From positions 2,728,001-2,792,000 of the forward strand of contig NZ_FMHW01000002.1 in assembly GCF_900090325.1 (NCBI RefSeq): a DNA stretch of 64,000 nucleotides. Reading direction: 5' to 3'. The DNA is from Micromonospora pallida. Lineage in GTDB: Bacteria > Actinomycetota > Actinomycetes > Mycobacteriales > Micromonosporaceae. The notes under the pieces are model-generated. The model worked only from the letters and a program-made list of their open reading frames with translations. It was not told the origin of the DNA and ran no database searches. Both the position numbers and the translations under genes were made by a program. Shown one piece after another: positions 28,934-42,573 of the stretch. The first letter of the stretch is position 1, and every line of letters begins with the position of its first letter.

Positions 28934-29626
28934 TCAGGCGCGGGACAGGGCCCGGTCGCTGACGAAGGACTGGAGACCGAACTGGCGGGCCCGACGCTCG
29001 GCGAAGTCGGCGAGCCCCTGGCTGTCGGCGTAGTCCAGGCTGTACAGGTCCAGCTCCAACTGGAGCAGTTGCTCGGCGATCTGGGCGTGGAACTCGAGCA
29101 CGTCGGCCGGCCACGGGGCGTAGCTCTGCTCGGTCCACCGGGCCGAGAACGACTCGAAGACGATCCCGTCGACGATCTCGGCCAGCCGGGGCAGCATGCC
29201 GAACCCCCGGTTGGCCAGCAGGTACGCCGGCTCGGCCTCCTCCCGTACCGCGGCGACCAGGGTGAGCAGGTGCGGTACGTCCTCGGGATAGGTCAGCTCG
29301 ACGTTGAGCGTGTCCAGGAAGAGCCCGGCGAAGCCCCGGGCGACCGCCTGCTTCGCCGCGCCGACGACATGCGCCACCCAGAGTGGGTGGTCGACGTGGA
29401 CGAACGCGCCGCCCCAGTCCGGGTTGCGTTCCCGGCGCTGCCAGGGCGCGGGCGGGCCCTGGTCCTCGGACAGGGACAGGTAGGCGAGGGTCTGGACGTC
29501 CTGCTCGGCGAGGTACCGCAGTTCGGCCGGCTGGTAGGCGTCCGGCTGGAGGACCACGCGCACGTACCCGGCGAGGTCGTCCAGACGTCCCTGACCGTAG
29601 TAGAAGCAGATGGGTCGTCGGGTCAT
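28934..29626 (-). CDS. GH114/TM1410-like barrel protein without signal peptide
   Basis: This 230-residue protein starts at the ATG overlapping the preceding stop (ATGA). Sequence blocks typical of the GH114 endo-alpha-1,4-polygalactosaminidase / TM1410 superfamily are visible: 'TLAYLSLSED', 'KQAVARGFAGLFLDTLN' with the Asp of the LD-pair, and 'YLLANRGFGMLPRLAEIVDGIVFESFSARW' split over strands. GH114 enzymes cut alpha-1,4-linked galactosamine polymers. Unlike the sister protein at 32020-32973, it has no signal peptide or anchor, so it would act in the cytoplasm or leave by an unusual route. It is the last gene of the exopolysaccharide operon. Confidence 0.75.
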   Translation of the reverse strand: MTRRPICFYYGQGRLDDLAGYVRVVLQPDAYQPAELRYLAEQDVQTLAYLSLSEDQGPPAPWQRRERNPDWGGAFVHVDHPLWVAHVVGAAKQAVARGFAGLFLDTLNVELTYPEDVPHLLTLVAAVREEAEPAYLLANRGFGMLPRLAEIVDGIVFESFSARWTEQSYAPWPADVLEFHAQIAEQLLQLELDLYSLDYADSQGLADFAERRARQFGLQSFVSDRALSRA

Positions 29627-30591
29627 CACGGCCACCCGTGCTCTCGGTACCAGGCGAAGGTGCTGCGCACGCCCTCCTCCAGGCTGACGGTCGGCTCGTA
29701 GCCGGTCAGCTCGCGCAGCCGGGACAGGTCCGGGCAGCGGCGGGTGACCGAGCCGGGGGGCGCCGGCTCCGCCGCGATGGCGGGACTCACCCCGGCCACC
29801 CGCAGCACCAGCTTGGCGAGGTCACCGATGTTGGTCTCCTCGCGGTCGTTGCCGATGTGCACGATCTGCCCCGCCGCGGCCGGGGCGGCCATCAGCCGCA
29901 GCATGGCCTCGACCGCGTCGTCCACGTGGCAGAAGGCCCGGTACTGGTCGGCGCCGGGGACCGGGAACGGGTCGGCGCCGCGCAGGGCGCGCAGGGACAT
30001 CTCCGGGACGACGTGGTCGGCGCCCATCCGTGGTCCGTAGACGTTGTGGAAGCGGCCGACCACGGTCTCGAAGCCCCGGGCCCGGGCGGTGTGCAGGAAC
30101 GCGGCCTCACCGAGGAGTTTGCTGGCCGCGTACGCGAACCGGGGGGCGGTGATGTCGGAGATCATCGTCGGCACGGTCTCGGGCGTCGGCACCGGCACCA
30201 CCCCGGCCGTCACGCCACCGGCGTAGACCTCGCTGGTGGAGGCGAAGAAGACCCGCTCCCCCGGGGCCACCCAGTCGAGCATGTGCAGCGCGGCCAGGGT
30301 GTTGACCCGGACCACCCGGGCCGGGTCCTGCTCCACGTTGCGGACGCCGACGACGGCGGCGAGCAGGTAGATCTGGTCCCAGCCGGACGGCAGGGCGGCC
30401 CAGGTGTCCGGGTCGGTCAGGTCTCCGGAGACCACCCGCACCGCTGGGTAGCTGCGGAGGCGGTCGAGGTCGGCGTCGTCGCGACCACGGGAGAAGTCGT
30501 CCACGATGGTCACCTGGTGTCCGTCGGCGACCAGGCGTCGGGCGAGGTGCAGGCCGATGAAGCCGGCCCCGCCGAGCAGGAGCGTCCTCAT
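29626..30591 (-). CDS. NAD-dependent nucleotide-sugar epimerase/dehydratase
   Basis: This 321-residue extended SDR starts at ATG 30591, which overlaps the upstream stop. It opens with the Rossmann loop 'GGAGFIGLHLARRL'; the catalytic pair is 'YAASKLLGEAAF' with Tyr and Lys four apart, and Ser/Thr sits in 'FFASTSEVYAGG'. 'FHNVYGPRM' and 'HVDDAVEAMLRLM' are typical of UDP-glucose/GlcNAc 4-epimerases and UDP-glucuronate decarboxylases. The adjacent nucleotide-sugar dehydrogenase makes a uronate-handling reaction possible. It shares ATGA overlaps on both sides. Confidence 0.87.
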   Translation of the reverse strand: MRTLLLGGAGFIGLHLARRLVADGHQVTIVDDFSRGRDDADLDRLRSYPAVRVVSGDLTDPDTWAALPSGWDQIYLLAAVVGVRNVEQDPARVVRVNTLAALHMLDWVAPGERVFFASTSEVYAGGVTAGVVPVPTPETVPTMISDITAPRFAYAASKLLGEAAFLHTARARGFETVVGRFHNVYGPRMGADHVVPEMSLRALRGADPFPVPGADQYRAFCHVDDAVEAMLRLMAAPAAAGQIVHIGNDREETNIGDLAKLVLRVAGVSPAIAAEPAPPGSVTRRCPDLSRLRELTGYEPTVSLEEGVRSTFAWYREHGWP

Positions 30592-31934
30592 GCCGTCGCC
30601 ACCTCCGTCGCGGGCGCGACCGACCCGGCGGCGGCCGGTGCGGCGGGCAGGTAGCCGAGGCCCGCGTAGCGGATCCCGGCGGCGGTGACCGCGTCGGCGT
30701 CGAGCACCCGCCAGGAGTCGTAGATGAACGCGGGCCGGGCCGTGCCGAGCACCTCCGGGATCCGGATCGCCCGGTAGTCCGGGTGGTCGTTGATGACCAG
30801 GACGGCGTCCGCGTCGGTGAACGCCTTGTCCAGGCTGACCGGCTCGCCCCCGTACTGCTGGATCACCTCGTCGGTGACCATCGGGTCGTGGCCGAGGACG
30901 GTGACGCCGGCGGCGGAGAAGACCGGCATCATCGCGGCGATCGGGGTGCCGCGCATGTCGTCGGTGGGCGGCCACCCCTTGTACGCCCAACCGAGCACGG
31001 CCAGCCGGGTGCCGCGGCTGCTACCGCGCGCCTCGGTCAGCATCCGGACCACGGTCTCAGCGACGTGGACCGGCAGGTACTCGTTGAGTTCGCGGGCCTT
31101 GCCGACGAGGAACGGCGCCCGCTCCCCCGCGCTGTCGATCATGATGTACGGGTCCTTGGAGAGGCAGCCTCCCCCGACGTACCCGGGCTTGGCGAGGTCC
31201 GGGCGTGGGTAGTCGACGTTCGCCGCCCTGATCACCTCGAGGGGGTCGAGGCCGTGCCGCTCGGCGATCAGCGCGATCTCGTTGCCGAAGGAGTAGATCA
31301 GGTCGGTGTGGCAGTTGTTGGAGAGCTTCACCAGCTCGGCGGTCTCCAGGTCGGACACCGGGACGATGGCCTGCGCCAGTCCGCCGAAGAACTCGACCCC
31401 GGCGGCGAGGCTCTCGTCGTCCAGACCACCGACCACCTGCGGCAGTTCGACGAGTTCGCGTAGGGCCTGGCCCTGGATGGTCCGCTCCGGTGCCATCACC
31501 AGCCGGACCTGGTCACCCCAGGCGGCCCGCAGCTCTGGCAGCACGATCCGGCGGCTCGCGCCGACCGGCACCGTGCTGCGGACCACGACCAGGGTGCCGG
31601 GGCGGCAACTGGCGGCGACGGCCCGGGCGGCGGCGGCCAGGTTCGCCAGGTTCGGCCGGCGGGTGACGTCGTCGACCGGGGTCGACACGCTGATCACCGC
31701 CACGTCGACGGTGTCCTTGGGCAGTTCGGTGGCCACGTGGATGTCCCGGCCGATGCGCTCGGCGAAGACGTCCTCGACGCCGGGCTCGAAGATGTGCGGG
31801 CGGCCCCGGGACAACGACGCCAGAACCGCCGGTGACACGTCCGCGCCGTACACGGTGAAGCCCTTGTCGGCGAGCGCGGCGGTGAGTGTGAGACCCACGT
31901 AGCCCAGGCCGACGACTCCGATTTTGGTGCGCAC
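30588..31934 (-). CDS. Nucleotide-sugar dehydrogenase (UDP-ManNAc/UDP-Glc DH family)
   Basis: This 448-residue enzyme starts at GTG 31934 after AAAGGACGAG. The NAD site is 'GVVGLGYVGLTLTAALADKG'. The middle domain has 'SNNCHTDLIYSFGNEIALI' and the catalytic Cys257 lies in 'GYVGGGCLSKDPY'. The C-terminal domain has 'AVLGWAYKGWPPTDDMRGTP', which differs slightly from the common GLAFK-x-x-T-D-D-x-R. The reaction is a two-step NAD oxidation of a UDP-hexose or UDP-HexNAc to its uronic acid. It is more like WecC-type (ManNAc) than Ugd-type by the 'YPRPDLAKPGYVGGGC' spacing. It suggests that the exopolysaccharide contains an acidic sugar. Confidence 0.87.
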   Translation of the reverse strand: MRTKIGVVGLGYVGLTLTAALADKGFTVYGADVSPAVLASLSRGRPHIFEPGVEDVFAERIGRDIHVATELPKDTVDVAVISVSTPVDDVTRRPNLANLAAAARAVAASCRPGTLVVVRSTVPVGASRRIVLPELRAAWGDQVRLVMAPERTIQGQALRELVELPQVVGGLDDESLAAGVEFFGGLAQAIVPVSDLETAELVKLSNNCHTDLIYSFGNEIALIAERHGLDPLEVIRAANVDYPRPDLAKPGYVGGGCLSKDPYIMIDSAGERAPFLVGKARELNEYLPVHVAETVVRMLTEARGSSRGTRLAVLGWAYKGWPPTDDMRGTPIAAMMPVFSAAGVTVLGHDPMVTDEVIQQYGGEPVSLDKAFTDADAVLVINDHPDYRAIRIPEVLGTARPAFIYDSWRVLDADAVTAAGIRYAGLGYLPAAPAAAGSVAPATEVATA

Positions 31935-32019
31935 TTGTCTCGTCCTTTCGGTGTTGAGGGGAGGTCCGCCTGCGCGGACCGGCCGTCGCGACGCATGCGT
32001 GCGGCCGCGACGGGGCGAC

Positions 32020-32973
32020 TCAGCCGCAGGGGGCGGTGAGCCGGTCGAGGTCCCGGACGGTGACCGTGCCGGCGAACCGTTCCGCGCGGTACCGGCCGCA
32101 GGCCGTCCGCACGTGGTCGGCCCGCACGGCGTAGTCGACGGCGAGCACGAACTTGCCCGCGTCGCGCAGCGCCCGGGTGTGGGTCAGGTTCTCCGCGCAC
32201 CAGTCGCGTGTGCACGGCTCGTCGGTGGCCTGGTAGAAGAGTTCCTCCATCGCGATGCCGTCGACGGCGGCGGGGTAACCCGACTGCTCGCGCAGCTCGG
32301 GTGAGTTCTGCGGGACGATCAGGAAGCCGGGCCGCCGGGCCTTGGCGTACTCGCTGATCCGGACGATCAGCGCGGCCATCTCGGCGGCGAGCCGCGCCCG
32401 GTCACGGCCCTGGGCGGCGTCGAGGGAGATCTCCTCGTACGCCAGCGGCGTGTCCAGGTAGACCCCGTCGAAGCCGGCGCGCAGCGCCTGGTCCACCCGG
32501 GGCCGCACGACCCGGTCCCACCAGCGGGGATCCCAGTAGTGGACGAAGTACTCGCCGGGCCAGTCCGGCCACTCGTTGGCCAGCAGGTCCGGGGCGTCCC
32601 GGCGGAGCACCGGGTACTCCGGGCGGAAGTCCTCGATGCTGCCGATCTCGAAGTACGCCAGTGTCCGCTTGCCGCTGCGGCGCAGCGCGCCGATCTCGGC
32701 GGCGGTGAAGTAGTCGGTGTGTCCGTCCCGGGTCAGGTCGACGACGGCGAGTTGGTAGCGGCCCCGGGCCAACGTGTCGAGCCGGCCGTCGGCGTACCCC
32801 TGTAGCTGGTACGCCCAGTTGGTGATCCGCCCCGGCGGCGGCGCCGACCGCGGGCTGGCCGCCGGGCGGCGGGCGACGAACCCCCATCCCGCGGCGAGCA
32901 CCAGCACGGTCATGCTGGCGAGGGCGGCCAGGAGGTGTCGGCGCCGGTTGCCGCCGGTGGCCCGGTGGCTCAC
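32020..32973 (-). CDS. GH114-like endo-alpha-1,4-polygalactosaminidase, anchored
   Basis: This 317-residue protein has an N-terminal anchor or signal helix (about residues 13-31), then a TIM-barrel with GH114 marks. The mature part begins 'NWAYQLQGYA'; 'AYFEIGSIEDFRPEY' holds the Glu of strand 3, and 'GFDGVYLDTPLAYEE' holds the catalytic-type Asp. 'FLIVPQNSPELRE' and 'GIAMEELFYQ' with Glu follow. Ega3 of the fungal galactosaminogalactan locus and the hydrolase part of bacterial PelA are functional parallels; they trim or process galactosamine-rich polymer outside the membrane. It overlaps the upstream epimerase gene by 4 bases. The distal Cys pairs near the C-terminus may form disulfides. Confidence 0.82.
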   Translation of the reverse strand: MSHRATGGNRRRHLLAALASMTVLVLAAGWGFVARRPAASPRSAPPPGRITNWAYQLQGYADGRLDTLARGRYQLAVVDLTRDGHTDYFTAAEIGALRRSGKRTLAYFEIGSIEDFRPEYPVLRRDAPDLLANEWPDWPGEYFVHYWDPRWWDRVVRPRVDQALRAGFDGVYLDTPLAYEEISLDAAQGRDRARLAAEMAALIVRISEYAKARRPGFLIVPQNSPELREQSGYPAAVDGIAMEELFYQATDEPCTRDWCAENLTHTRALRDAGKFVLAVDYAVRADHVRTACGRYRAERFAGTVTVRDLDRLTAPCG

Positions 32974-33866
32974 CGGGCCTCCCCGGCGGCCCAGACGTCC
33001 TTGATCGACGTCGCCAGGTCACGCACCGGCGACCAGCCCAGCTCGCGGCCGGCCCGGCCGACGTCGGCCCGGATCCAGTCGACCGCGGTCGAGCGCTGCG
33101 GTCCGGTGCCGGCCTCGCGGATCCGGCCGGGGTAGCCGGCGGTGGTGGCCAACAGCTCGACCGCCTCCCGCGCGGTGACCGCCCGCCCGCTGCCCGCGTT
33201 GAAGACGCGGTGCCGCAGTTCGGGCGCGAGCACCACGGCGACGATCAGCGCGGCGAGGTCCCGCACGTCCACGAAGTCCCGGTACGCCGACAGCGGCCCC
33301 AGGGTGACCTCCGGCGCGCCGCCGGCCAGCGCGTGCCGGATGCGGGCCGCCGCCCGGCCGAGCAGGTTCTCCTCCGACATGCCGGGGCCGATCGGGTTGA
33401 AGACCCGCAGCGACACCGCGTCGACCTGCCCGGTCTCGCCGGCGAGTTGGAACAGCCGGGTCCCGGCCAGATGGCTGACGCCGTACGCGCTGAGTGGCCG
33501 CGCGGGGTCCTCCTCGGTGACCGACACGCCGTCCGGCACCAGGCCGTACTCGCCGGCCGAGCCGAGCCGGACCAGTCGGGCCCCGGGTGCCACCGCCCTG
33601 GTCGCCTCGAGCAGCTTCGCCGCGACCAGCGTGTTCGCCGTGACCAGGTGGGCGGCGGAGCCGGTGAGCGCGCCCACGCAGGTGACGACCGCGTCCGGGG
33701 CCGTGCGGCGCAGGACCGCCGCGAGCCCGTCCGGGTCGCCGTCAAGCAGGTCGTAGGTCGCCCGGCCGGGGCAGACCACCTCGGCTATCCGTGGGTCGGA
33801 CTCCAGCGCGGCGCGCGCGTGCCCGCCGATGAAGCCCGACGCGCCGAAGAGCAGCACCCGCGTCAC
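32970..33866 (-). CDS. NAD(P)-dependent sugar epimerase/reductase (SDR)
   Basis: This 298-residue extended SDR has the N-terminal loop '[16 protein letters not shown]'. '[11 protein letters not shown]' supplies the catalytic Ser, '[12 protein letters not shown]' has Tyr but the usual Lys four residues on is His, and '[19 protein letters not shown]' is epimerase-like. It resembles GDP-6-deoxy-lyxo-hexulose or dTDP-sugar reductases as well as UDP-sugar epimerases. The YxxxH in place of YxxxK is a notable deviation that may alter or weaken activity. It overlaps both the nucleotidyltransferase (4 bases) and the GH114 gene. Confidence 0.82.
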
Positions 33867-34651
33867 CGGCCCTCCCCGGAGCGCGCGATGCCGGCCGCGA
33901 CACCGGCGACCGAGCCGACCGCCGGGTCCGCCGGCCCCGGACCCGCCGGCAACAGGATCGGCTTGAGCTGGAGGAACGTCCGGTTCGCCTCGTCGTAGTC
34001 CTCCGGGCGGCCGATGTCCAGCCAGAACCCGTCGAACGGGTAGGTGGCCGGGTGCTCCCCCGCCGCGAGCAGGTCCAGCACCAACTGGTCGAAACCGAGG
34101 GGAACCCCAGGCGGGTACGGCGTGAGCGTCTTGCGCGACATGCCGTACACACCCATGCTGACCGGATAGCGCAGCGCCGGCTTCTCCCGGAACCCGACGA
34201 TCCGCCCGGCGTCCACGTCCAGCACCCCGAAGTCGATCCGGTGCACCCGCTCGGAGGTCGCCAGGGTCAGCGCCGCGCCGGAGACCGTGTGGGTACGCAG
34301 CAGGTCGGCGTAGTCCAGGTCGGTGAGGATGTCCCCGTTCATGACCAGGAACTCGTCGGGCAGCCGGTCCTTGAGTCCGAACAGCGGGCCGACCGTGGAC
34401 AGTGGGCGGTCCTCCTCGACGTAGTCGATGGTGAGGCCCCAGCGACGGCCGTCCCCGACGAACGCCCGGATCAGCGGGCCGAGGTAGTTGATCGCCAGGG
34501 TCACCGAAGTGAACCCGTGCGAGGCGAGCTGATCGAGCACGATCTGCAGGATCGAGTGACTGTCACCGATCGGCATCAGGGGCTTGGGCAGCGTCGTCGT
34601 GTACGGCCGCAACCGCACTCCCTTGCCGCCGGCAAGGATCACCGCGTGCAT
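33863..34651 (-). CDS. Sugar-1-phosphate nucleotidyltransferase
   Basis: This 262-residue protein has the nucleotidyltransferase signature '[25 protein letters not shown]' (split here at residues 5-29), with Lys in TLPKPL. The metal-binding Asp is in '[14 protein letters not shown]', and '[19 protein letters not shown]' follows. It makes an NDP-sugar from a hexose-1-phosphate and NTP; the length and the 'VSMGVYGM' region resemble mannose-1-phosphate guanylyltransferases and glucose-1-phosphate transferases. The C-terminal 30 residues are a low-complexity tail. It probably supplies an activated sugar for the polymer. It follows the membrane protein gene after 16 bases. Confidence 0.87.
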
Positions 34652-34667
34652 CCTGACCTCCCCAGTC

Positions 34668-36197
34668 TCATCGGTAGTGCCGGACCTGCCCGATCACCGG
34701 GAGGAGACCGAGCGCGAACAACGCCTGGAGCAGCAGCACGCTGCCCAGGTGGAGCGAGGTGTCGACGAGCGCGGAGCCGTCCTGCCCGAGCAGGGGCGCG
34801 ACGCCGAGCAGCCCACCGACCCCGACGTGCACGGCGATCACGACCACCATGGACAGGCACAGCCAGCCGTACCGGCCCCGGCCGGCCAGCAGGAACGCCA
34901 GGTAGTAGGTGCCGGCGAGCGCGACGTGCGCGGCCGTCATCACCACGCCGGCGGGCGAGAGCAGGCCCGCCTGGGCGAAGACGGCCAGCAGCACCAGCCC
35001 CAGCACCGCCGCGACCGCGAGGCAGGCGGCCACGTCCCGGCCGATCGCCCGCCAGATCCGGGCGGCGAACTCCTCCGGCCGGCGGGCCTGCCGGGTCAAC
35101 GCCACCGCGTTAACCCGGAACCGGCTGGTCCGCCACTCCACGAAGCCCATGGAGAGCAGCAGCGGGGCGGCCGCCGCCGCGATGTCCAACCGGTCCAGCA
35201 GGTACGCGGTCTGGGCGTGGAAGAGCAGCGCCGCCGAGCAGAGCCCGTAGCCGGCCACCCCGACCAACGCGGACGCCGCCGGCAGCAGCGGATCCCGGGG
35301 GGCCGGTTCGTCGGCCCGCGCGGGGGCGCGGGTGGCGTACAGGGCCACGGCGAACGCCGCCAGCACGCAGACCACCGCGGCGGCCACCGCCCACCGTCGG
35401 GACGTCGGATCGCCGAGGAGCAGGTGAGCCGCGCCGAACAGGAAGGCCGGGAGCTGCGTCACGGCCAGCCAGGTCTCCCGCCGGTAGAAGATCAGCAGCG
35501 TGCTGGCCATCTGGTACGCCAGTTGGCAGACCATCATCGCGGCCAGGGGCAGGCCACCCTGCGACAGCACGGCGACGCCGAGCAGCACGCCGAGCGACGG
35601 GCCGATCAGCGCGGCGGCCCGCAGGAGCCGGGCCGCCGAGCGGGGCCGCCCCAGTCCGAGCAGCCGGTACGCCGCGTAGGCGGTGACACCCGAGAAAACC
35701 CAGCCGACCGTCCCGGCGAGGACCAGCCCGAGCACCAGACCCGGCCGGCCGACCACCGTCAGCACCGCCGGGAACGTCGCACTCGGCAGCAGGTAGAGCG
35801 GTCCGTGCCAGATCGGTCGCAGCCCTTCCCACCGGCGGCGGCCGGAGTCGACCGAGGTGGCGGCCTCGGCGACCGGGGAACGCGGGCCCAGTCGCTGGTA
35901 GACCTCGGAGGCGAGGGTGAAGACGTCGGCGTAGCCGTACTCGACCTGGGCGCCCCGGTCGGTGTGCCCGGCGGCCTCCAGGGCGGCGGCGACCTGGAGG
36001 GCGTCGACCGCCTGGCCGAGCTGGGGGCGGACCCGTTCGACCAGTTCGTCGACGGGATCGGTGGAGATCCTGGGCAGCAGGATGGTGCGTTCCGGCTCGC
36101 CCGCGCGATCATCCCGGGACGGTGCCGGGTGGGCGGTCATCGTGCCGACCGGCCGCCGCAGCTGAATGGTGGCGTCGGGGTCGGAGTAGGCGCTCAT
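34668..36197 (-). CDS. Multi-spanning membrane protein of exopolysaccharide operon (PelG-like?)
   Basis: This 509-residue protein starts at the ATG (36197) that overlaps the glycosyltransferase stop. A cytosolic N-terminal part of about 110 residues precedes roughly 11-12 hydrophobic helices between 115 and 505, as in MOP-superfamily polysaccharide transporters. Coupling by ATGA to a PelF-like glycosyltransferase mirrors pelF-pelG. I therefore suggest a PelG-like or flippase role in moving the growing chain across the membrane. I see no diagnostic motif proving PelG, and the long hydrophilic N-terminus is unusual, so an alternative is a distinct membrane subunit particular to actinomycetes. 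Confidence 0.7.
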
Positions 36198-37918
36198 CGC
36201 GGCCCGCCGGCCAGTCGCAGCGTCCCGCCCGCCGGGTCGCCGTCCGGGTGTTCCGGCCTGGCCGCACGCGGCGGCCACGCGGCCGGGTCCGGGGCGTGGC
36301 GCGGGACGTACGCCCCGTTGACCCGACCCTGCTCCTGCGGCCCGCGCTGGCGGGGCACCCGGGGGACGGTGGCCACCCCGGGCCGGATCTTGCGGTTCGG
36401 CACGACGACCCGGCCCTGCGCCTGGCCCCGCAACGGCTTCGACGGTGCCGACCCGGTCCGGGGCACGGCGAGCCCCTCGTAGATGTCGCGGTACGCCTGT
36501 AGCGACCGTTGCAGCGTGAACTTCTCCAGGACGCGGGCCCGGGCGACCGCGCCGAGCTGAAGCCGCAGCTCCCGGTCGCGCAGCAGCCGCACGCAGGCGT
36601 CGGCGACGGCGGACACGTCCCGGGGGGCGACCACGAAGCCGGTGTCGCCGACCGCCTCGGCGACGCCGCCGACGTTGGTGCAGACGGTCGGCCGACCGCA
36701 CGCCATCGCCTCCACCACGGTGTACGGGAAGCCCTCGGAGATGCTGGTCAGCGCGACCAGGTTGCCGGCGTGGTACGCCTCGACCGCGCTGCCGACCCGG
36801 CCCTCCAGGACGGCGTGGCCGGTCAGTCCGAGTTCGTCGATCAGCGCCTCGCAACTGGCGTGGTAGACCTTGTTCGCGGCCGGCGTACCGCCGAAGATGC
36901 GCAGTCGGGCGGTCGGGATCTCGGCGCGGACCAGCGCGAACGCCCGGATCAAAGTGTGCAGGTCCTTGAGCGGGTCGATGCGGCCCATGAACGAGATGGT
37001 CGGCACGTCCGGTTCGCCGGCCGCCGGCGGGAACTCGTCCGGGTCGACACCGTTGTACATGGTCCACATCCGCTCGGGGTCGCCGCCGTTGTGCAGCTGC
37101 CAGCGCCGGTTGTACTGGGAGTGCGGCGCCAGCGCGCTGCTGATCAGGTAGGCCGCGCCGGCGAGGGAGCGGAAGAAGCTCAGCACCAGCACCCGTACCG
37201 CGTGCGGCGCGTTGTCGTGCAGGTAGGAGATGTACCGTTCCCGCAGGTAGATGCCGTGTTCGGAGAGGACCAGCGGGGTGCCGTAGGCCCAGTTCGCGGC
37301 CATGCCGACGAGCATGGCGAGGCCGTTCATCGACGAGTGCACGATGTCCGCCCGGACCGGTGGCGCGCTCAGCGGCCGCAGCATGTGCGCGATGAGCCAG
37401 GCCGCCTCGAGCGCGTCGGCAACGGTGAGCGCGGGTCCGGTCTCGTCGACCCGGAGGGTGTGCCAGGCATCCAGCATCATCCCGAGGGCCTGGTTGGAGA
37501 GCAGGCCCTCGCTCAGGTCACCGCCGTCGGCGGCGTACTCGAACATGCCGCGCAACGCGAGCAGGAAGGTGCTCCGGTTGACCGCACCCGCCTGGGAGCG
37601 GGTCGACTCCAGCGGGGTGACCAACGCCCGCAGGAACACCTCGTAGGACTCGACGAAGCCCGCGCCGGGCCGGCCGGTGGGCACGAGCGACCCCCGCTGG
37701 GGGCGGCGGCCCAGCGGCCGTCCGCCCCACAACGGGATCGAGTGCACCCGGTCCAGGTTCGCCGGCCGGTCGAACACCGGTTGCTCGGTGCCGTCCACGG
37801 TGAGCGCCACGACCTCCCACCGGTAGTCGGGCATCCCCTTGATGAGCTGTTCGCACCAGATGCTCACGCCGCCCATCGCGTAGGGGTAGGTCCCTTCCGA
37901 GACCAGAGCGATCCTCAC
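36194..37918 (-). CDS. pelF: PelF-like GT4 glycosyltransferase
   Basis: This 574-residue GT-B enzyme begins 'MRIALVSEGTYPYAMGGVSI', the well-known PelF opening (E-G-T-Y-P-Y-x-x-G-G-V-S). The C-terminal GT4 half has 'FMGRIDPLKDLHTLIRAFALV' and 'RIFGGTPAANKVYHASCEALI'. The donor motif is 'LTSISEGFPYTVVEAMACGRPTVCT', with the EGFPYTVVEA variant of E-x7-E. PelF polymerises UDP-GalNAc (and GlcNAc) into Pel. The final 90 residues are a Pro/Arg/Gly-rich tail absent from standard PelF. It lies between the deacetylase gene (50-base gap) and the membrane protein gene (overlap). The specificity for GalNAc is inferred from family and neighbours. Confidence 0.82.
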   Translation of the reverse strand: MRIALVSEGTYPYAMGGVSIWCEQLIKGMPDYRWEVVALTVDGTEQPVFDRPANLDRVHSIPLWGGRPLGRRPQRGSLVPTGRPGAGFVESYEVFLRALVTPLESTRSQAGAVNRSTFLLALRGMFEYAADGGDLSEGLLSNQALGMMLDAWHTLRVDETGPALTVADALEAAWLIAHMLRPLSAPPVRADIVHSSMNGLAMLVGMAANWAYGTPLVLSEHGIYLRERYISYLHDNAPHAVRVLVLSFFRSLAGAAYLISSALAPHSQYNRRWQLHNGGDPERMWTMYNGVDPDEFPPAAGEPDVPTISFMGRIDPLKDLHTLIRAFALVRAEIPTARLRIFGGTPAANKVYHASCEALIDELGLTGHAVLEGRVGSAVEAYHAGNLVALTSISEGFPYTVVEAMACGRPTVCTNVGGVAEAVGDTGFVVAPRDVSAVADACVRLLRDRELRLQLGAVARARVLEKFTLQRSLQAYRDIYEGLAVPRTGSAPSKPLRGQAQGRVVVPNRKIRPGVATVPRVPRQRGPQEQGRVNGAYVPRHAPDPAAWPPRAARPEHPDGDPAGGTLRLAGGPR

Positions 37919-37968
37919 CGAGTGCTCCCGTTCACTTCTGCTTCACTGGTTTGTCGTCCGCCCCGGTG

Positions 37969-40104
37969 TCAGGGACGGGGGGCGGCGGTGAACGTCACGG
38001 GCGTGCTCGCCACGAGCGTCACCGGCACGGTGACGTCGGTGCCGTACGTGGTGGCACCCGTGGTCGTCGAGGTCACACCCGCCAGCCGGAGGCTGCCGGC
38101 GGCCGGCGAGGTCACCGTGATCTCACCGGTGGTCCGGTTGTAGATCGCCTCGGCCCCGGCGCCGAGCGCGGCGAAGTGGCTGTTGCGCGACTTGGTGTAC
38201 GCGGCGATGTCGGTCCACGCCGAGTTCAGCAGCGGCACCGAGTAGAGCGCGTCGTACTTGCCCACCACGGCCTCGACCCAGTCGCTGACCAGGCTGTCGC
38301 CCGAGCCGTAGTCGCGCACGTTCGCGATGTGGAAGGTGTGCGCGTAGATCGAGCCGGACGCCACGTGCTGCAACGCCACCCCGGCCTCGTAGTCGAGCAG
38401 CTGGGCGTAGGTGCGGTCGGTGGGCCAGTACGGGAAGAGCCCGTTCGGGCCGTAGAAGGAGTTGTAGAAGACCGTCTGCTCAGCCGGGGTGGTGGTGTGG
38501 TACGCGATGTTCGTCGGCCAGCACGGCACCACCTGGATGGTCGAGTTCAGCGGGTGCGCGGTGCCCCCGTTGAAGTGCGCCGGGCGGTGGCTGGCGAACG
38601 ACATGTTGCCGGCCATGGTGGTCACGCCGAGGTCCTCGGCGGCGTCCAGCAGGTCGGAGTTGGACCCCGTCAGCCCGTGGTCGGTGGGCGGGCCGGTGTC
38701 GTTGTCCGGGTCGTCGTTGTAGACCCCGAGGCCGGAGTACTCGGGGGTCTTCAGCACGCTGTTCGGGGAGGTCAGCCCGATCGCCGCGCCGGCGGTCCGG
38801 TTGTCGCTGATCTCGTTGTACGAGGTGGTGTAGTCCGTCGAGTTCAGCTCGGGGTGGTTGAACGTGTGGTTGATCCACCGGAAGTTGTTCTTCAGGCACT
38901 TCGTGGTGGCGGTCAACGTGGTGGCGTCGCCGTTCGGGCTGCACTGGTCACCGGCGAACGGGTCGATGTCGGAGCCGTTGAACGCGATGTTGTAGGTGAA
39001 CCCGGCCGCCTTGGGGTAGGCGGTGCGCAGGGCGGTCTGCCGCGCGTCGAGGTTGACCGTGTCGTGGCCGCTGACCTGGAAGCCGGGGCTGTACTCGACG
39101 GTGCCGTCCTCGAGGTAGTGGTCCGAGGTGTTGAACCAGTCGTCGATGTCGACGTTCAGGTGGTGCTTCTGCTCACCGAAGTGCAGACCCTTGGTCGCCC
39201 ACCGGTACAGGCCGTAGACCAGCAGGTCGGAGTGGAGCAGGGCGTGGTTCGAGGTGAACGTCAGCGCGATGCGCTCCCGGCCGTCGGTGGAGGTGGTGCG
39301 CACGCCCAGCACGTCCGAGCCGTTGGTCATCAGGGCGTCGGCGGCGCAGCCGGACCGAATCGAGGTCCGGTAGACGTACGAGTGGGTGACCGGGATCTGG
39401 GCGGCGCTGTTGAGGTAGTCGAAGACCGCGGCGCCGTTGGTGGTCAGCGAGACGGGCAGCGGCGTCTCGCCGACCCCACCCTCACCGTTGGAGGTGAGGC
39501 AGTAGTCCTCCGGCCAGGTGCCGTAGCTGGTGTAGAGGGCGGCCTGCCGGACCTGGAAGTTGCGCTCGTACGCCCAGAGGGTGTTCCACTCCGTGCTGGT
39601 CAGACCGCTCAGGTAGTTACCGTTGTGCTCGTACATCTGCATGCTGTTGGTCAGCAGGATCGCGTTGTACTTGCCGACGCCGTCGGAGCGGACGAGCGTG
39701 CTGGCGCTGAGCGTCTGGGTGGCGGTGTAGATGATGTCGTAGGGCGCACCGACCCGGTCGAGCGTGGTGGTGAGCGTCGGCACCCCGAAGTCGGCCGTGT
39801 TGGTGGCCACGATCAGCGCCTTGAGCGCGACCTGGTCGTTGAGGGCCTGGGTGCCGACGCCGCCGCGCTGGGCGGTCGTGGACTCGGCGACCCGGACGGT
39901 GCCGGACTTCTTGGGCAGCGGGGCGGGGCGGGCCTGCTTCGGGCTCGCGACCTGGCCGAGACCAGGGACGGTGGGCGGCTGGGCCGGTGCGGTCGACGGC
40001 CGGGCGAGGCCGGGGGTCTGGGCGCCGAGCACGACCGTGAGCACGGTCAGCCCGGCGAGGGCGAGTCGGGTGGCGCGACGGCGCGCAGGTCCGGTGTGGA
40101 CCAT
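37969..40104 (-). CDS. Secreted CE18/Agd3-like polysaccharide deacetylase
   Basis: This 711-residue protein starts at ATG 40104 after CGGAGGT. A signal peptide (about residues 8-35) is followed by a Pro-rich linker, an N-terminal domain (about 85-305) with 'ALIVATNTADFGVPTLTTTLD', and the catalytic domain. The catalytic domain shows 'LNVDIDDWF' (319-324 region, Asp pair) and 'WINHTFNHPELN' with His413 and His417. That Asp/HxxxH metal site and the domain order resemble Agd3, the N-acetylgalactosamine deacetylase (CE18) of the Aspergillus galactosaminogalactan locus. The C-terminal 90 residues are beta-rich. As first gene of the operon it would make the polymer cationic by removing acetyl groups. 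Activity is inferred. Confidence 0.8.
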   Translation of the reverse strand: MVHTGPARRRATRLALAGLTVLTVVLGAQTPGLARPSTAPAQPPTVPGLGQVASPKQARPAPLPKKSGTVRVAESTTAQRGGVGTQALNDQVALKALIVATNTADFGVPTLTTTLDRVGAPYDIIYTATQTLSASTLVRSDGVGKYNAILLTNSMQMYEHNGNYLSGLTSTEWNTLWAYERNFQVRQAALYTSYGTWPEDYCLTSNGEGGVGETPLPVSLTTNGAAVFDYLNSAAQIPVTHSYVYRTSIRSGCAADALMTNGSDVLGVRTTSTDGRERIALTFTSNHALLHSDLLVYGLYRWATKGLHFGEQKHHLNVDIDDWFNTSDHYLEDGTVEYSPGFQVSGHDTVNLDARQTALRTAYPKAAGFTYNIAFNGSDIDPFAGDQCSPNGDATTLTATTKCLKNNFRWINHTFNHPELNSTDYTTSYNEISDNRTAGAAIGLTSPNSVLKTPEYSGLGVYNDDPDNDTGPPTDHGLTGSNSDLLDAAEDLGVTTMAGNMSFASHRPAHFNGGTAHPLNSTIQVVPCWPTNIAYHTTTPAEQTVFYNSFYGPNGLFPYWPTDRTYAQLLDYEAGVALQHVASGSIYAHTFHIANVRDYGSGDSLVSDWVEAVVGKYDALYSVPLLNSAWTDIAAYTKSRNSHFAALGAGAEAIYNRTTGEITVTSPAAGSLRLAGVTSTTTGATTYGTDVTVPVTLVASTPVTFTAAPRP

Positions 40105-41022
40105 GTACTGACCTCCGATGAGGAGACGACCGGGGAGAGAGAGTCCGATGTGGACAGTGACAGTCCACCGTGGACCGGTGAGGTGCCGAGGAAGGCTATC
40201 AATCGGCCTTTCGATTGCCACGTTTTCAGCTGTCGGCTGCCGCATTGACGCAAATTCGATCGCCTGCTAGTGCGGCATTTTCGCCGCCGCTTCCAGTGAC
40301 CCCTTTTCGTGGGTCTTGAATACGAGCCCCGGTAGCCTGACGTGCAGTTTTCCAAGAAATGCCGCAACGGCCACCCATGGCCGCTTTCGCCACGATTGGG
40401 GCGGACAGGGCGCAGGCCGACACCGATCGAACCAGCGCCTGCGACGTTCGACCGCCACGGCCCAGCCGAATTGGGCGGCGACACGGCCGTACCGGCGACA
40501 GAAATCGTACGTTCGACCGATGGGCGGCCGGGTCCGCGCGGTTGGCCGGCGACGGCACGATCCGCCACCGGCCCGCCCGATGTCGAGGCTTTGAAGTTTG
40601 CGCAGGCAGCCACCCTTTTGGTGGGAAAACCCGGCGGGTGTCGCGTACGTCGGGGATTTTTCTCTGCCCGCTTTGATGGCGCACGGCGACCCGAGCGGCA
40701 ATGTCGTCGATTTTCGAGGATTGCGCCAGGCCAGTCGCGGTGTAACGGGGCACGAATGCGCAACCGGTGGAACGGTGCAGCGATAATCGGTGGAACGTTG
40801 CATACGAGAAAGTGCCGTCAACGTCGTTACTCGGCAGTGGCCCTGATGTCGCCGTTGGCGGGTCCGCCCCGCCGACCAGGACGACGTAGGCGGCGTGCCC
40901 CGTACCGTGGTCACCACGATCATCGCCGCGCACGCCACCGCGCAGCACCGGAGGCTGCGCCGGCGGCGCCAGCCTGCTTGACGAGCCGCGCACACCGACG
41001 CGCAGCACCGGAGGGAGCCAGC
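40105..41022. other. Long intergenic region, regulatory
   Basis: No credible gene is visible in these 918 bases; open frames here lack family features and actinomycete third-position bias. The first 500 bases are noticeably less GC-rich than the coding DNA, with runs such as TTTTCGTGGG and AAGAAATGCCGC. The region must hold the leftward promoter of the exopolysaccharide operon and the rightward promoter of the MFS gene. I could not identify a riboswitch or a clear operator in it. Confidence 0.5.
40925..41014 (+). repeat. Direct repeat, two 30-base copies
   Basis: Copies at 40925-40954 and 40985-41014 match at 27 of 30 positions and are exactly 60 bases apart; both end CGCAGCACCGGAGG. The second copy provides the ribosome site of the MFS gene. 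The first may be a duplicated leader, or both may be protein-binding sites. Confidence 0.6.
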
Positions 41023-42356
41023 ATGTCGCAGGTGTCGACCGACCCGGTCGATCCCGCCACGCCGGGGTTGTCGGCCCGACCGGCCCCCGCCTGGTCCGCC
41101 TGGCGGGCCGTGGTCGGATTCGGGATGGTCAGCCTGGCCGCCGACATGGTCTACGAGGGCGCGCGGTCGGTCACCGGACCGCTGCTGGGCGCCCTGGGCG
41201 CCTCGGCGCTGGTCGTCGGCCTGGTCACCGGTGCCGGAGAGGGCATGTCGCTGCTGCTGCGGCTGGCCTTCGGGCCACTGGCCGACCGCACCGGCCGTTA
41301 CTGGTCGCTGACCCTGAGCGGATACGCGTTGACCGCCGTCTGCGTTCCCCTCCTCGCCGTGGCACCCTTCCTGGGCGGCGCCGGCCTGGCCGTCGCCGCC
41401 GCGTTGATCCTGGCCGAACGGGCCGGCAAGGCGGTCCGCAGCCCGGCCAAGTCGGCGTTGCTGGCCCAGGCCGCCGGCGCCGTCGGTCGCGGTCGTGGCT
41501 TCGCGGTCCACAAGGCTCTGGACCAGCTCGGCGCGTTCGCCGGGCCGCTGCTGGTCGCGGCCGTCATCGCGGCCACCGGCCTGGTCTGGCCGGCCCTGGC
41601 CGGCCTGGCCATCCCCGGCGCGGCGGCCATCGGCCTGCTGCTGTGGATCCGCCGACGCGTGCCCGACCCGGCCGTCTTCGACACTGGTACGCCACCAGCC
41701 GCACCCGCCCTGGCCGGCTCCGACACCGGTACACCGCCGGCCGCACCCGCCCCGGCCACCACCGCGCCGCCGACCCCCCGCAGCGGTTGGTTCGGGGCCG
41801 ACCTGCCCCGGCGCTTCTTCCTGTTCGCCGCAGCGGCCGGGGCCGCCACCGCCGGGCTGGTGACCTTCGGGATCATCTCCTTCCACGCCAGCCAGACCGG
41901 TGTGCTCGCCGCCGCGGCGATCCCGCTGCTGTACGCCGCCGCGATGGTCGCCGCCGCGATGGCCGCGCTGGCCAGCGGCTACCTGTACGACAGGTGGCAC
42001 GCCCGGGTGTTGTTCGCCCTGCCCGTTCTCGGCGCCGCCGTGCCGGCACTGGCCCTGTCCACCACGGCCGGCGCCATCGTGGCCGGAACCCTGCTGTGGG
42101 GGCCGCCGTCGGAGTGCAGGACTCGACCGTCAAGGCGCTCGTGGCCGACCTGGTTCCCGCCGCCCGCCGGGCCACCGCCTACGGCGTCTTCGCCGCCGTC
42201 CAGGGCGCTGCGGCACTGGCCGGCGGAGGCGTGGCCGGGGCCCTGTACACCCGCTCGCTGCCCGTCCTGATCGCCGTCCTCGGTGCCAGCCAGGTCCTCG
42301 CGCTGGGCCTGCTCGCCGCCAGCCTCCGCACCCCCCGGACACCGCCGGCGCGCTGA
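41023..42356 (+). pseudogene. MFS transporter, frameshifted near the C-terminus
   Basis: The first 360 codons encode an MFS protein with 'GFGMVSLAADMVYEGARSVTGPLL' at helix 1 and 'GPLADRTGRYWSLTLSG' as the loop 2-3 motif; about 10 helices are seen. At a run of five G (42098-42102) the frame is lost. In the intended frame the protein would read on as 'VGVQDSTVKALVADLVPA' to 'RTPPAR' ending at 42356, completing the last helices. One extra G restores the frame. As read, translation ends at 42270 with a nonsense tail. GGAGGGAG precedes the ATG. It may be a true disruption, a slippery phase-variable run or a sequencing error. The loop near residue 225 contains an internal duplication (DTGTPPAAPA twice). 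Substrate unknown. Confidence 0.78.
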
Positions 42357-42573
42357 GTACCCGACCGGCCGGGAGTCAGGTGAGTAGCCGTGCCGGCACT
42401 TTCCTAACTTCGTGCCATCAATTCGGATCTGGGTGACGTTTCAGCCGCCCGCCGCTTTGCAGAAAGTGCCGCTTGTTGCGTCATGCACGTCGGGGCATCC
42501 CGGCTGCTGGCGCTGACCACGAGCGGGGAAATACTGGTGGCATCCAATCTTTTCCACTCCATCAGGAGGCGCG

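What the first reader, a model, noticed from the sequence alone, without database searches (positions are those of the whole stretch)
28934..40104. Pel/galactosaminogalactan-like exopolysaccharide operon in an actinomycete
Nine leftward genes, mostly overlapping, include a PelF-like glycosyltransferase coupled to a multi-spanning membrane protein. They also include two GH114-like (polygalactosaminidase) proteins, an Agd3-like deacetylase, two SDR epimerases, a nucleotidyltransferase and a nucleotide-sugar dehydrogenase. Bacterial Pel loci join hydrolase and deacetylase in PelA, while the fungal GAG locus has separate Ega3 and Agd3; this operon follows the fungal division of labour with a bacterial PelF. 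No PelD, PelE, PelB or PelC is present. The dehydrogenase predicts an acidic sugar as well. This may be a distinct, little-studied polymer system.
Basis: partly seen in the sequence, partly recalled or inferred. Interest (0 to 1): 0.85.

Follow-up and report, generated by a model that had tools for sequence, protein, structure and literature searches.

The report
Pel-like sugar-polymer operon in Micromonospora
A block of nine genes in a soil bacterium looks like a kit for making, exporting and trimming a positively charged sugar polymer related to the biofilm glues Pel and galactosaminogalactan; the same kit recurs in many related soil bacteria, and what it makes has yet to be tested.

Summary
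The nine leftward genes are real, at the stated coordinates, and occur in the same order in 39 of 75 Agd3-seeded loci. The host is a Micromonospora. Most likely they make, export and partly deacetylate a galactosamine-type exopolysaccharide. The general idea is in print: Bamford et al. 2020 (PMC7229062, passages) reported bacterial Agd3 operons, some in Actinobacteria, with a glycosyltransferase, a membrane protein and GH114 genes. The membrane protein has the MOP flippase/exporter fold assigned to PelG, but no detected PelG sequence similarity. The dehydrogenase is adjacent in 68 of 75 loci to a UDP-glucuronate-decarboxylase-like SDR, so an acidic sugar is not the simplest reading. The Agd3-like enzyme keeps metal site, base and acid, but its clade replaces two residues reported as essential in fungal Agd3 (R613 mostly by Asp, Cys here; M666 by Thr). 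Four CE18 proteins from other loci, two beside pelF-pelG, keep the arginine. So this is a distinct branch rather than a fungal-like arrangement. Polymer, linkage and regulation are untested.

The parts
37969..40104 (-). Secreted Agd3-like CE18 deacetylase with CBM87 (711 aa); base D321, metal ligands D322/H413/H417, acid H592; CM3 arginine replaced by C528, M666 equivalent by T590
36194..37918 (-). PelF-like GT4 glycosyltransferase (574 aa, DUF3492 + GT domain)
   Evidence: NCBIfam NF038011 160.8 bits, cut-off 100; PF11997 E 8.8e-45; 30% identity, E 2.7e-61 to the PelF of L081, which lies beside a Pfam PelG
34668..36197 (-). MOP-superfamily-fold membrane protein (509 aa) with a small helical N-terminal domain; PelG-like by fold, not by sequence; overlaps the PelF gene by 4 nt
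33863..34651 (-). Sugar-1-phosphate nucleotidyltransferase
   Evidence: PF00483 E 2.1e-33; nearest solved chains mannose-1-phosphate guanylyltransferases
32970..33866 (-). SDR NDP-sugar epimerase/reductase-like protein; Lys of YxxxK replaced by His132
   Evidence: PF01370 E 4.8e-33; nearest solved GDP-6-deoxy-D-mannose reductase; residue 132 is H in 49, K in 18, R in 4 of 71 rows
32020..32973 (-). GH191-type endo-galactosaminidase with one N-terminal hydrophobic segment (15-33), so probably secreted or anchored; D174/E243
   Evidence: PDB 9ep5 = Env-GH191 E 2e-78, TM1410 about 3e-31, Ega3 only about 5e-7; D and E in 56 of 56 rows; hydropathy
30588..31934 (-). Nucleotide-sugar 6-dehydrogenase with Cys257
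   Evidence: TIGR03026 292.6 bits, cut-off 189.8; nearest solved UDP-ManNAcA dehydrogenase 4r16, Cap5O, CalS8; Cys in 69 of 69 rows
29626..30591 (-). SDR, UDP-glucuronate-decarboxylase (UXS)-like: TSE, YxxxK and RxPD motifs
   Evidence: PDB UXS1 4lk3 E 2.1e-36 with motifs aligned; motif residues in 69 of 69 rows
28934..29635 (-). Stand-alone PelA-hydrolase (GH166)-like TIM barrel, no signal peptide seen, catalytic pair D108/E161
   Evidence: PDB 5tcb PelA E 4.6e-15, profile E 1.1e-22 against 2e-4 for TM1410; D and E in 55 of 55 rows; its N-terminal motif lies within 60 nt of the SDR stop in 42 of 44 loci

Best explanation
The operon makes, exports and matures a partly de-N-acetylated galactosamine-type exopolysaccharide. 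Inferred steps: the nucleotidyltransferase, dehydrogenase and two SDRs supply dedicated nucleotide sugars; the PelF-like retaining GT4 polymerises a HexNAc chain, probably alpha-1,4-GalNAc, at the cytosolic face; the overlapping MOP-fold protein carries the chain through the membrane; the secreted CBM87-CE18 enzyme removes acetyl groups, making it cationic; the secreted or anchored GH191 enzyme cuts or trims deacetylated stretches outside; the cytosolic PelA-hydrolase-like protein clears or edits acetylated chains inside. Shown here: gene content and order, conservation, predicted folds of the deacetylase and exporter, and intact catalytic residues apart from the CM3 and CM4 changes in the deacetylase and the Lys-to-His change in SDR1. 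Not shown: any activity, the polymer's composition, or its regulation.
For: PelF equivalog above cut-off and full-length similarity to PelFs beside PelG. Exporter fold MOP, the superfamily to which PelG is assigned (PMC13254593, passages). Deacetylase model equals 6nwz over all three domains, with metal ligands and acid/base each kept in 91 of 92 rows. The nearest solved relative of the big hydrolase is Env-GH191, which cleaves alpha-1,4-poly(N-acetyl)galactosamine (PMC12054363, passages). The nearest solved relative of the small hydrolase is the PelA hydrolase. PELF-MEM adjacent in 72 of 75 loci, nine genes in order in 39 of 75. In genome G837 an Agd3-like CE18 gene follows a GAF-GGDEF gene, an unmatched gene, pelF and pelG; G809 has PelF, PelG and CE18 hits likewise.
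Against: No gene is a clear UDP-GalNAc 4-epimerase. The nucleotidyltransferase and first SDR are nearest to GDP-sugar enzymes and the second SDR to a UDP-GlcA decarboxylase, so the monomer may not be GalNAc. Two residues reported as needed in Agd3 (R613, M666) are replaced in this clade. The exporter shows no PelG sequence signal. GH191 is missing from 20 of 75 loci, the PelA-like hydrolase from 21 and both from 8, contig-truncated loci included. The other characterised GH191, from Thermotoga, showed no activity or binding on GAG oligomers (PMC12054363, passages).
Confidence: 0.7

Rival explanations
1. A related but chemically different polymer: a non-GalNAc hexosamine chain or heteropolymer containing a pentose (UDP-Xyl from dehydrogenase plus decarboxylase) and/or a GDP-sugar, with a CE18 enzyme re-tuned to it.
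For: Dehydrogenase-SDR2 pair adjacent in 68 of 75 loci; SDR2 aligns to UXS1 with TSE and RxPD motifs and these are invariant in 69 of 69 rows; nucleotidyltransferase and SDR1 nearest to GDP-mannose-pathway enzymes; CE18 active-site replacements are clade-wide.
Against: Both hydrolases are nearest to solved galactosaminidases. Nearest-structure annotation does not fix substrate. NCBIfam ranks LegB and RmlB (100.8 bits each) above the UXS model (80.6), with GalE close behind (76.6), all below cut-off.
Confidence: 0.3
2. An acidic (zwitterionic) GalNAcA/GalN polymer, the first reader's acidic-sugar idea: UDP-HexNAc 6-dehydrogenase followed by a 4-epimerase SDR2.
For: The dehydrogenase scores higher with UDP-ManNAc dehydrogenase models than with UDP-Glc dehydrogenase models and its best solved chain is a UDP-ManNAcA dehydrogenase. 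The GalE epimerase model scores SDR2 at 76.6 bits, near the UXS model's 80.6.
Against: In the PDB, SDR2 is nearest to UXS1 (129 bits) and further from GalE 4zrm (103 bits); it has the UXS motifs. The TviC epimerase model scores only 30.8 bits.
Confidence: 0.15
3. A catabolic or defensive locus: the hydrolases and deacetylase degrade fungal GAG or other bacteria's Pel, and the GT is incidental.
For: Soil-type host; GH191 and CE18 could act on foreign polymer (inference, no call).
Against: A PelF-like GT overlapping an exporter-fold gene, with nucleotide-sugar genes, is kept together; one hydrolase has no visible signal peptide.
Confidence: 0.05

Closest known systems
Bacterial Agd3-containing operons of Bamford et al. 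2020 (PMC7229062; section 8 and passages read, Fig. 8c and supplements not seen)
   Same: Agd3 homologue with cytoplasmic GT, multi-spanning membrane protein and GH114 gene(s), including Actinobacteria; hydrolase and deacetylase as separate genes
   Different: The text that I read does not name the exporter fold, a PelA-type hydrolase, the four nucleotide-sugar genes or the CM3 replacement of this clade. It says CM3 is conserved in most of their bacterial homologues.
Gram-positive Pel operon pelDEADAFG (PMC7112168, PMC13254593; passages read)
   Same: PelF-type GT4, MOP-superfamily exporter, stand-alone deacetylase with a binding domain, separate PelA-type hydrolase gene
   Different: No PelG-type sequence and no PelD or PelE match among the nine genes; deacetylase is CE18 instead of PelADA; extra GH191 and nucleotide-sugar genes
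Fungal galactosaminogalactan cluster uge3-gtb3-agd3-ega3-sph3 (PMC4817252, PMC11356417; passages read)
   Same: Separate CE18 deacetylase and galactosaminidases, epimerase, membrane-linked GT
   Different: Hydrolases are GH191- and GH166-like rather than GH114 and GH135; CE18 lacks the R613 equivalent; Gtb3 itself was not compared
pelF/pelG/CE18 operons of two Actinomycetota genomes (L089, L090)
   Same: PelF and Agd3-like CE18 in one gene row
   Different: Has Pfam-confirmed PelG and (L089) a GAF-GGDEF protein; its CE18 keeps the CM3 arginine

Membership tests
CE18 (Agd3) | Three-domain CBM87-CE-beta architecture | tested here: met
CE18 (Agd3) | CM1 Asp base and metal Asp, CM2 HxxxH, CM4 catalytic His | tested here: met
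   D321, D322, H413, H417, H592 each in 91 of 92 rows
CE18 (Agd3) | CM3 arginine (R613) and M666, both needed for Agd3 activity (PMC7229062) | tested here: not met
   CM3 is D in 82, C in 8, G in 1, gap in 1 of 92 rows, and the M666 position is T in 91 of 92. No Arg in 120 protein-search relatives: D 87, C 13, A 2, G 2, 16 not matched by the pattern. L089, L090, L002, L004 have Arg at CM3; at the M666 position three have Met and L004 has Tyr. The paper itself says CM3 is kept in most, not all, bacterial homologues.
Pel system | PelF glycosyltransferase | tested here: met
   NF038011 160.8 bits above cut-off 100; 25-31% identity to four PelFs of other Actinomycetota over 509-524 alignment columns
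Pel system | PelG exporter by sequence | tested here: not met
   No Pfam hit for the 799-aa frame that holds the protein; PF16933 without match in own genome, positive control T. maritima rings; hhalign probability 0.0 and 0.2% against a 3-sequence PelG profile, a shallow one
Pel system | Exporter of the MOP superfamily fold | tested here: met
   Foldseek and VIA matches to WzxE, MATE, MurJ. PelG's own structure was not among the rows.
Pel system | PelD c-di-GMP receptor | tested here: inconclusive
   No such gene among the nine; PF16963 gave no match in the genome but rang in no control either
Pel system | PelA hydrolase domain (GH166) | tested here: met
   5tcb E 4.6e-15 single sequence, 1.1e-22 profile, catalytic D and E aligned
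Pel system | Polymer is partly deacetylated alpha-1,4-GalNAc | not testable with these tools
   needs chemistry
GH191 | Closer to Env-GH191/TmGH191 than to GH114 (Ega3), with Asp/Glu pair | tested here: met
   E 2e-78 and 3e-31 against 5e-7 (9ep5 is Env-GH191); D174/E243 in 56 of 56
Fungal GAG cluster | GH114 (Ega3) and GH135 (Sph3) hydrolases | tested here: not met
   the two hydrolases match GH191 and PelA best; other genes of the genome were not searched for GH114 or GH135
UDP-glucuronate decarboxylase (UXS) for SDR2 | TSE, YxxxK and RxPD motifs (RxPD as decarboxylase mark is recalled) | tested here: inconclusive
   Motifs align with UXS1 and are invariant, but NCBIfam matches are all below cut-off and LegB, RmlB rank first

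The most novel reading that the evidence does not exclude
A third lineage of the Pel/GAG-type machinery: a PelF-like polymerase coupled to an exporter that has the MOP fold but a separate sequence ancestry from PelG, with an extra N-terminal domain and no c-di-GMP receptor, a CE18 subclass with a rebuilt active site (Asp or Cys at CM3), and a cytosolic PelA-type hydrolase, making an amino-sugar heteropolymer that also carries a pentose or other extra sugar, spread among filamentous actinomycetes and shared with Thermaceae.
Probability: 0.3. Interest if true: 0.65.

Novelty: new variant of a known kind. Interest (0 to 1): 0.45.

Why it matters
If right, a group of filamentous soil actinomycetes makes an unrecognised cationic matrix polymer with its own synthesis, export and trimming set, so hyphal adhesion and matrix in these organisms become testable by single-gene deletion. 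It also gives natural variants of a deacetylase family (CE18) in which a residue found essential in the fungal enzyme is absent, and a PelA-type hydrolase apparently placed inside the cell, which bears on the open question of why exopolysaccharide operons carry a hydrolase.

Tried and rejected
Two GH114/Ega3-like hydrolases: rejected, because one is GH191-type and one PelA-type.

Exporter as PelG by sequence: no support. A weak chain of links exists: a protein in L086 scores 18.3 bits with the PelG model (below cut-off) and 27.5 bits with a profile of the window's exporter family. Composition could explain this, so I do not count it. Foldseek also lists an MFS transporter at probability about 0.7 among the exporter's matches.

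Arg409 as replacement for the lost CM3 arginine: rejected, since three of the four R-type CE18 proteins also have Arg there and the fourth has Lys. CM3 counts are partly biased, because the DNA scan used a pattern with D/C at that place; the protein-search relatives are free of that pattern but are close kin.

Sporangium matrix of Actinoplanes missouriensis: its known locus uses GH5 enzymes and a proposed Wzx/Wzy-type cluster (PMC12691653, passages), a different system.

Comparison with fungal Gtb3 was wanted and not achieved: two protein searches ended in errors. Promoter and terminator scan: no promoter-like site, and one terminator-like site inside a gene, below the shuffled mean. Gene permutations that appeared came from stop-to-stop frames; ordering by stop codon removed them. 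The PelF tree is the quick tree, the careful one not being finished.


Full report
What is there. The window lies in a 7.76 Mb, 4-contig genome. Closest named relatives of its proteins are from Micromonospora (M. echinospora 81% for the membrane protein; Micromonospora sp. 85% for the deacetylase). Nine minus-strand genes fill 28934-40104 with five overlapping junctions and gaps of 50, 16 and 85 nt.

Conservation. A scan of GTDB contigs seeded with an alignment of the Agd3-like protein gave 75 loci. All hold the Agd3-like gene by construction. Other genes present above my score thresholds: PelF-like 72, membrane protein 72, nucleotidyltransferase 72, SDR1 70, dehydrogenase 68, SDR2 68, GH191-type 55, PelA-like hydrolase 54, of 75. 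12 of the 75 loci are shorter than 20.5 kb, so some absences are contig ends; 8 loci show neither hydrolase. The exact nine-gene order is found in 39 of 75, PelF-membrane adjacency in 72, dehydrogenase-SDR2 adjacency in 68, and two Agd3-like frames in a row in 16, one of which (L078) looks like a single gene split in two frames. The loci include Micromonosporaceae, Streptosporangiaceae, Pseudonocardiaceae, Intrasporangiaceae and, outside the phylum, two Thermaceae, plus records titled Dermatophilaceae, Nocardia and Rhodococcus. The dehydrogenase and SDR2 sit on the strand opposite to the core in 17 loci, mostly those with two Agd3-like genes and both Thermaceae. In a sample of 300 Micromonosporaceae genomes, 68 match the membrane protein and 58 match CBM87. 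57 match both, within 8 kb on one contig in 56 and on different contigs in one; 11 match only the membrane protein, more weakly (E 1.6e-32 to 8e-4), and one only CBM87, below its cut-off. Agd3_CE itself is rare in the class at large: 4 of 394 genomes, own genome included.

Hydrolases. The 317-aa protein is nearest to PDB 9ep5 (E 2e-78), which is Env-GH191; Ega3 is far weaker. The paper shows Env-GH191 cutting alpha-1,4-poly(N-acetyl)galactosamine and likens its specificity to the GH166 leaning towards partly deacetylated stretches, while the Thermotoga GH191 showed no activity or binding (PMC12054363, passages). Its Asp/Glu pair is in 55 of 55 rows. In the window it has no hydrophobic segment, and its first conserved motif lies within 60 nt of the preceding stop codon in 42 of 44 loci with both genes on the plus strand, which leaves little room for a signal peptide. 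A conserved cytosolic PelA-type hydrolase is unexpected, and its role is inference only.

Sugar supply. SDR2 is nearest in the PDB to UDP-glucuronate decarboxylase UXS1, with the TSE, YxxxK and RxPD residues aligned and invariant in 69 of 69 rows. NCBIfam is less clear: LegB and RmlB 100.8 bits each, UXS 80.6, GalE 76.6, all below cut-off. The dehydrogenase is nearest to a UDP-ManNAcA dehydrogenase, Cap5O and CalS8. The nucleotidyltransferase and SDR1 are nearest to GDP-mannose-pathway enzymes. SDR1 has His in place of the Lys of YxxxK in 49 of 71 rows (mainly Micromonosporaceae and Streptosporangiaceae), Lys in 18 (mainly Pseudonocardiaceae) and Arg in 4, both Thermaceae among them. Gram-positive PelD proteins are reported to carry SDR domains that in streptococci, clostridia and actinobacteria are altered and probably inactive (PMC7112168, passages), which may be a parallel. 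These data make an acidic sugar possible but not the simplest reading.

A bridging architecture. In G837 (L089) the order is a GAF-GGDEF protein, an unmatched 335-aa protein, PelF, Pfam-confirmed PelG and Agd3-like CE18. The related genome G809 has PelG (L083) and PelF and CE18 matches (L090). Reading the first two genes as PelD and PelE is inference. So CE18 is used beside PelF-PelG too, and the Micromonospora operon is a second solution in which PelG was not found.

What is known. Bamford et al. 2020 reported Agd3 homologues in 45 bacterial species; the operons they identified all hold a cytoplasmic GT and a multi-spanning membrane protein, GH114 is highly consistent, and they favour a bacterial origin of the fungal cluster (PMC7229062, passages). 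I did not see their figure or supplements. Among the papers listed by the searches (30 of 32 listed; 9 of 9; 15 of 31; 7 of 7; 5 of 5) I saw no title or abstract of an experimental study of such an operon in an actinomycete; only open-licence PMC papers are held.

Verdict. I file the system as a variant of the Pel/GAG kind that fails the PelG sequence test and the CM3 test, and not as a member of Pel proper.

Noticed in passing
window 41000-42360, + strand: The divergent MFS transporter gene upstream of the operon may be frameshifted: the MFS-matching frame (40342-42270) seems to end in unlike-transporter residues while another frame (41643-42356) reads as a plausible continuation (judged by eye).
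   Followed up: no
L062, L072: Contigs titled Rhodococcus rhodnii NRRL B-16535 are 93-94% identical over 11.6-12.5 kb to Kibdelosporangium aridum contigs (L070, L073), so the record may be mislabelled.
   Followed up: partly
L043, L053, L055, L057-L060, L062, L064-L067, L069, L070, L078; also L027: Two Agd3-like frames in a row in 16 loci, 13 of them titled as genera that I recall as Pseudonocardiaceae; 15 pairs keep the CM1, CM2 and CM4 residues in both copies, and L078 looks like one gene split in two frames.
   Followed up: partly
L089, L090: Actinomycetota gene rows with PelF, PelG and CE18 Agd3-like (in L089 behind a GAF-GGDEF gene): CE18 in a pelDEFG-like operon.
   Followed up: partly
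L086:1492-3261 (-): A distant relative of the exporter shares its N-terminal motif (DELV...DVF.LA, by eye) and is weakly hit by the PelG model.
   Followed up: partly
window 32970-33866: SDR1 has His instead of the Lys of YxxxK in 49 of 71 rows, so it may be inactive or altered.
   Followed up: partly
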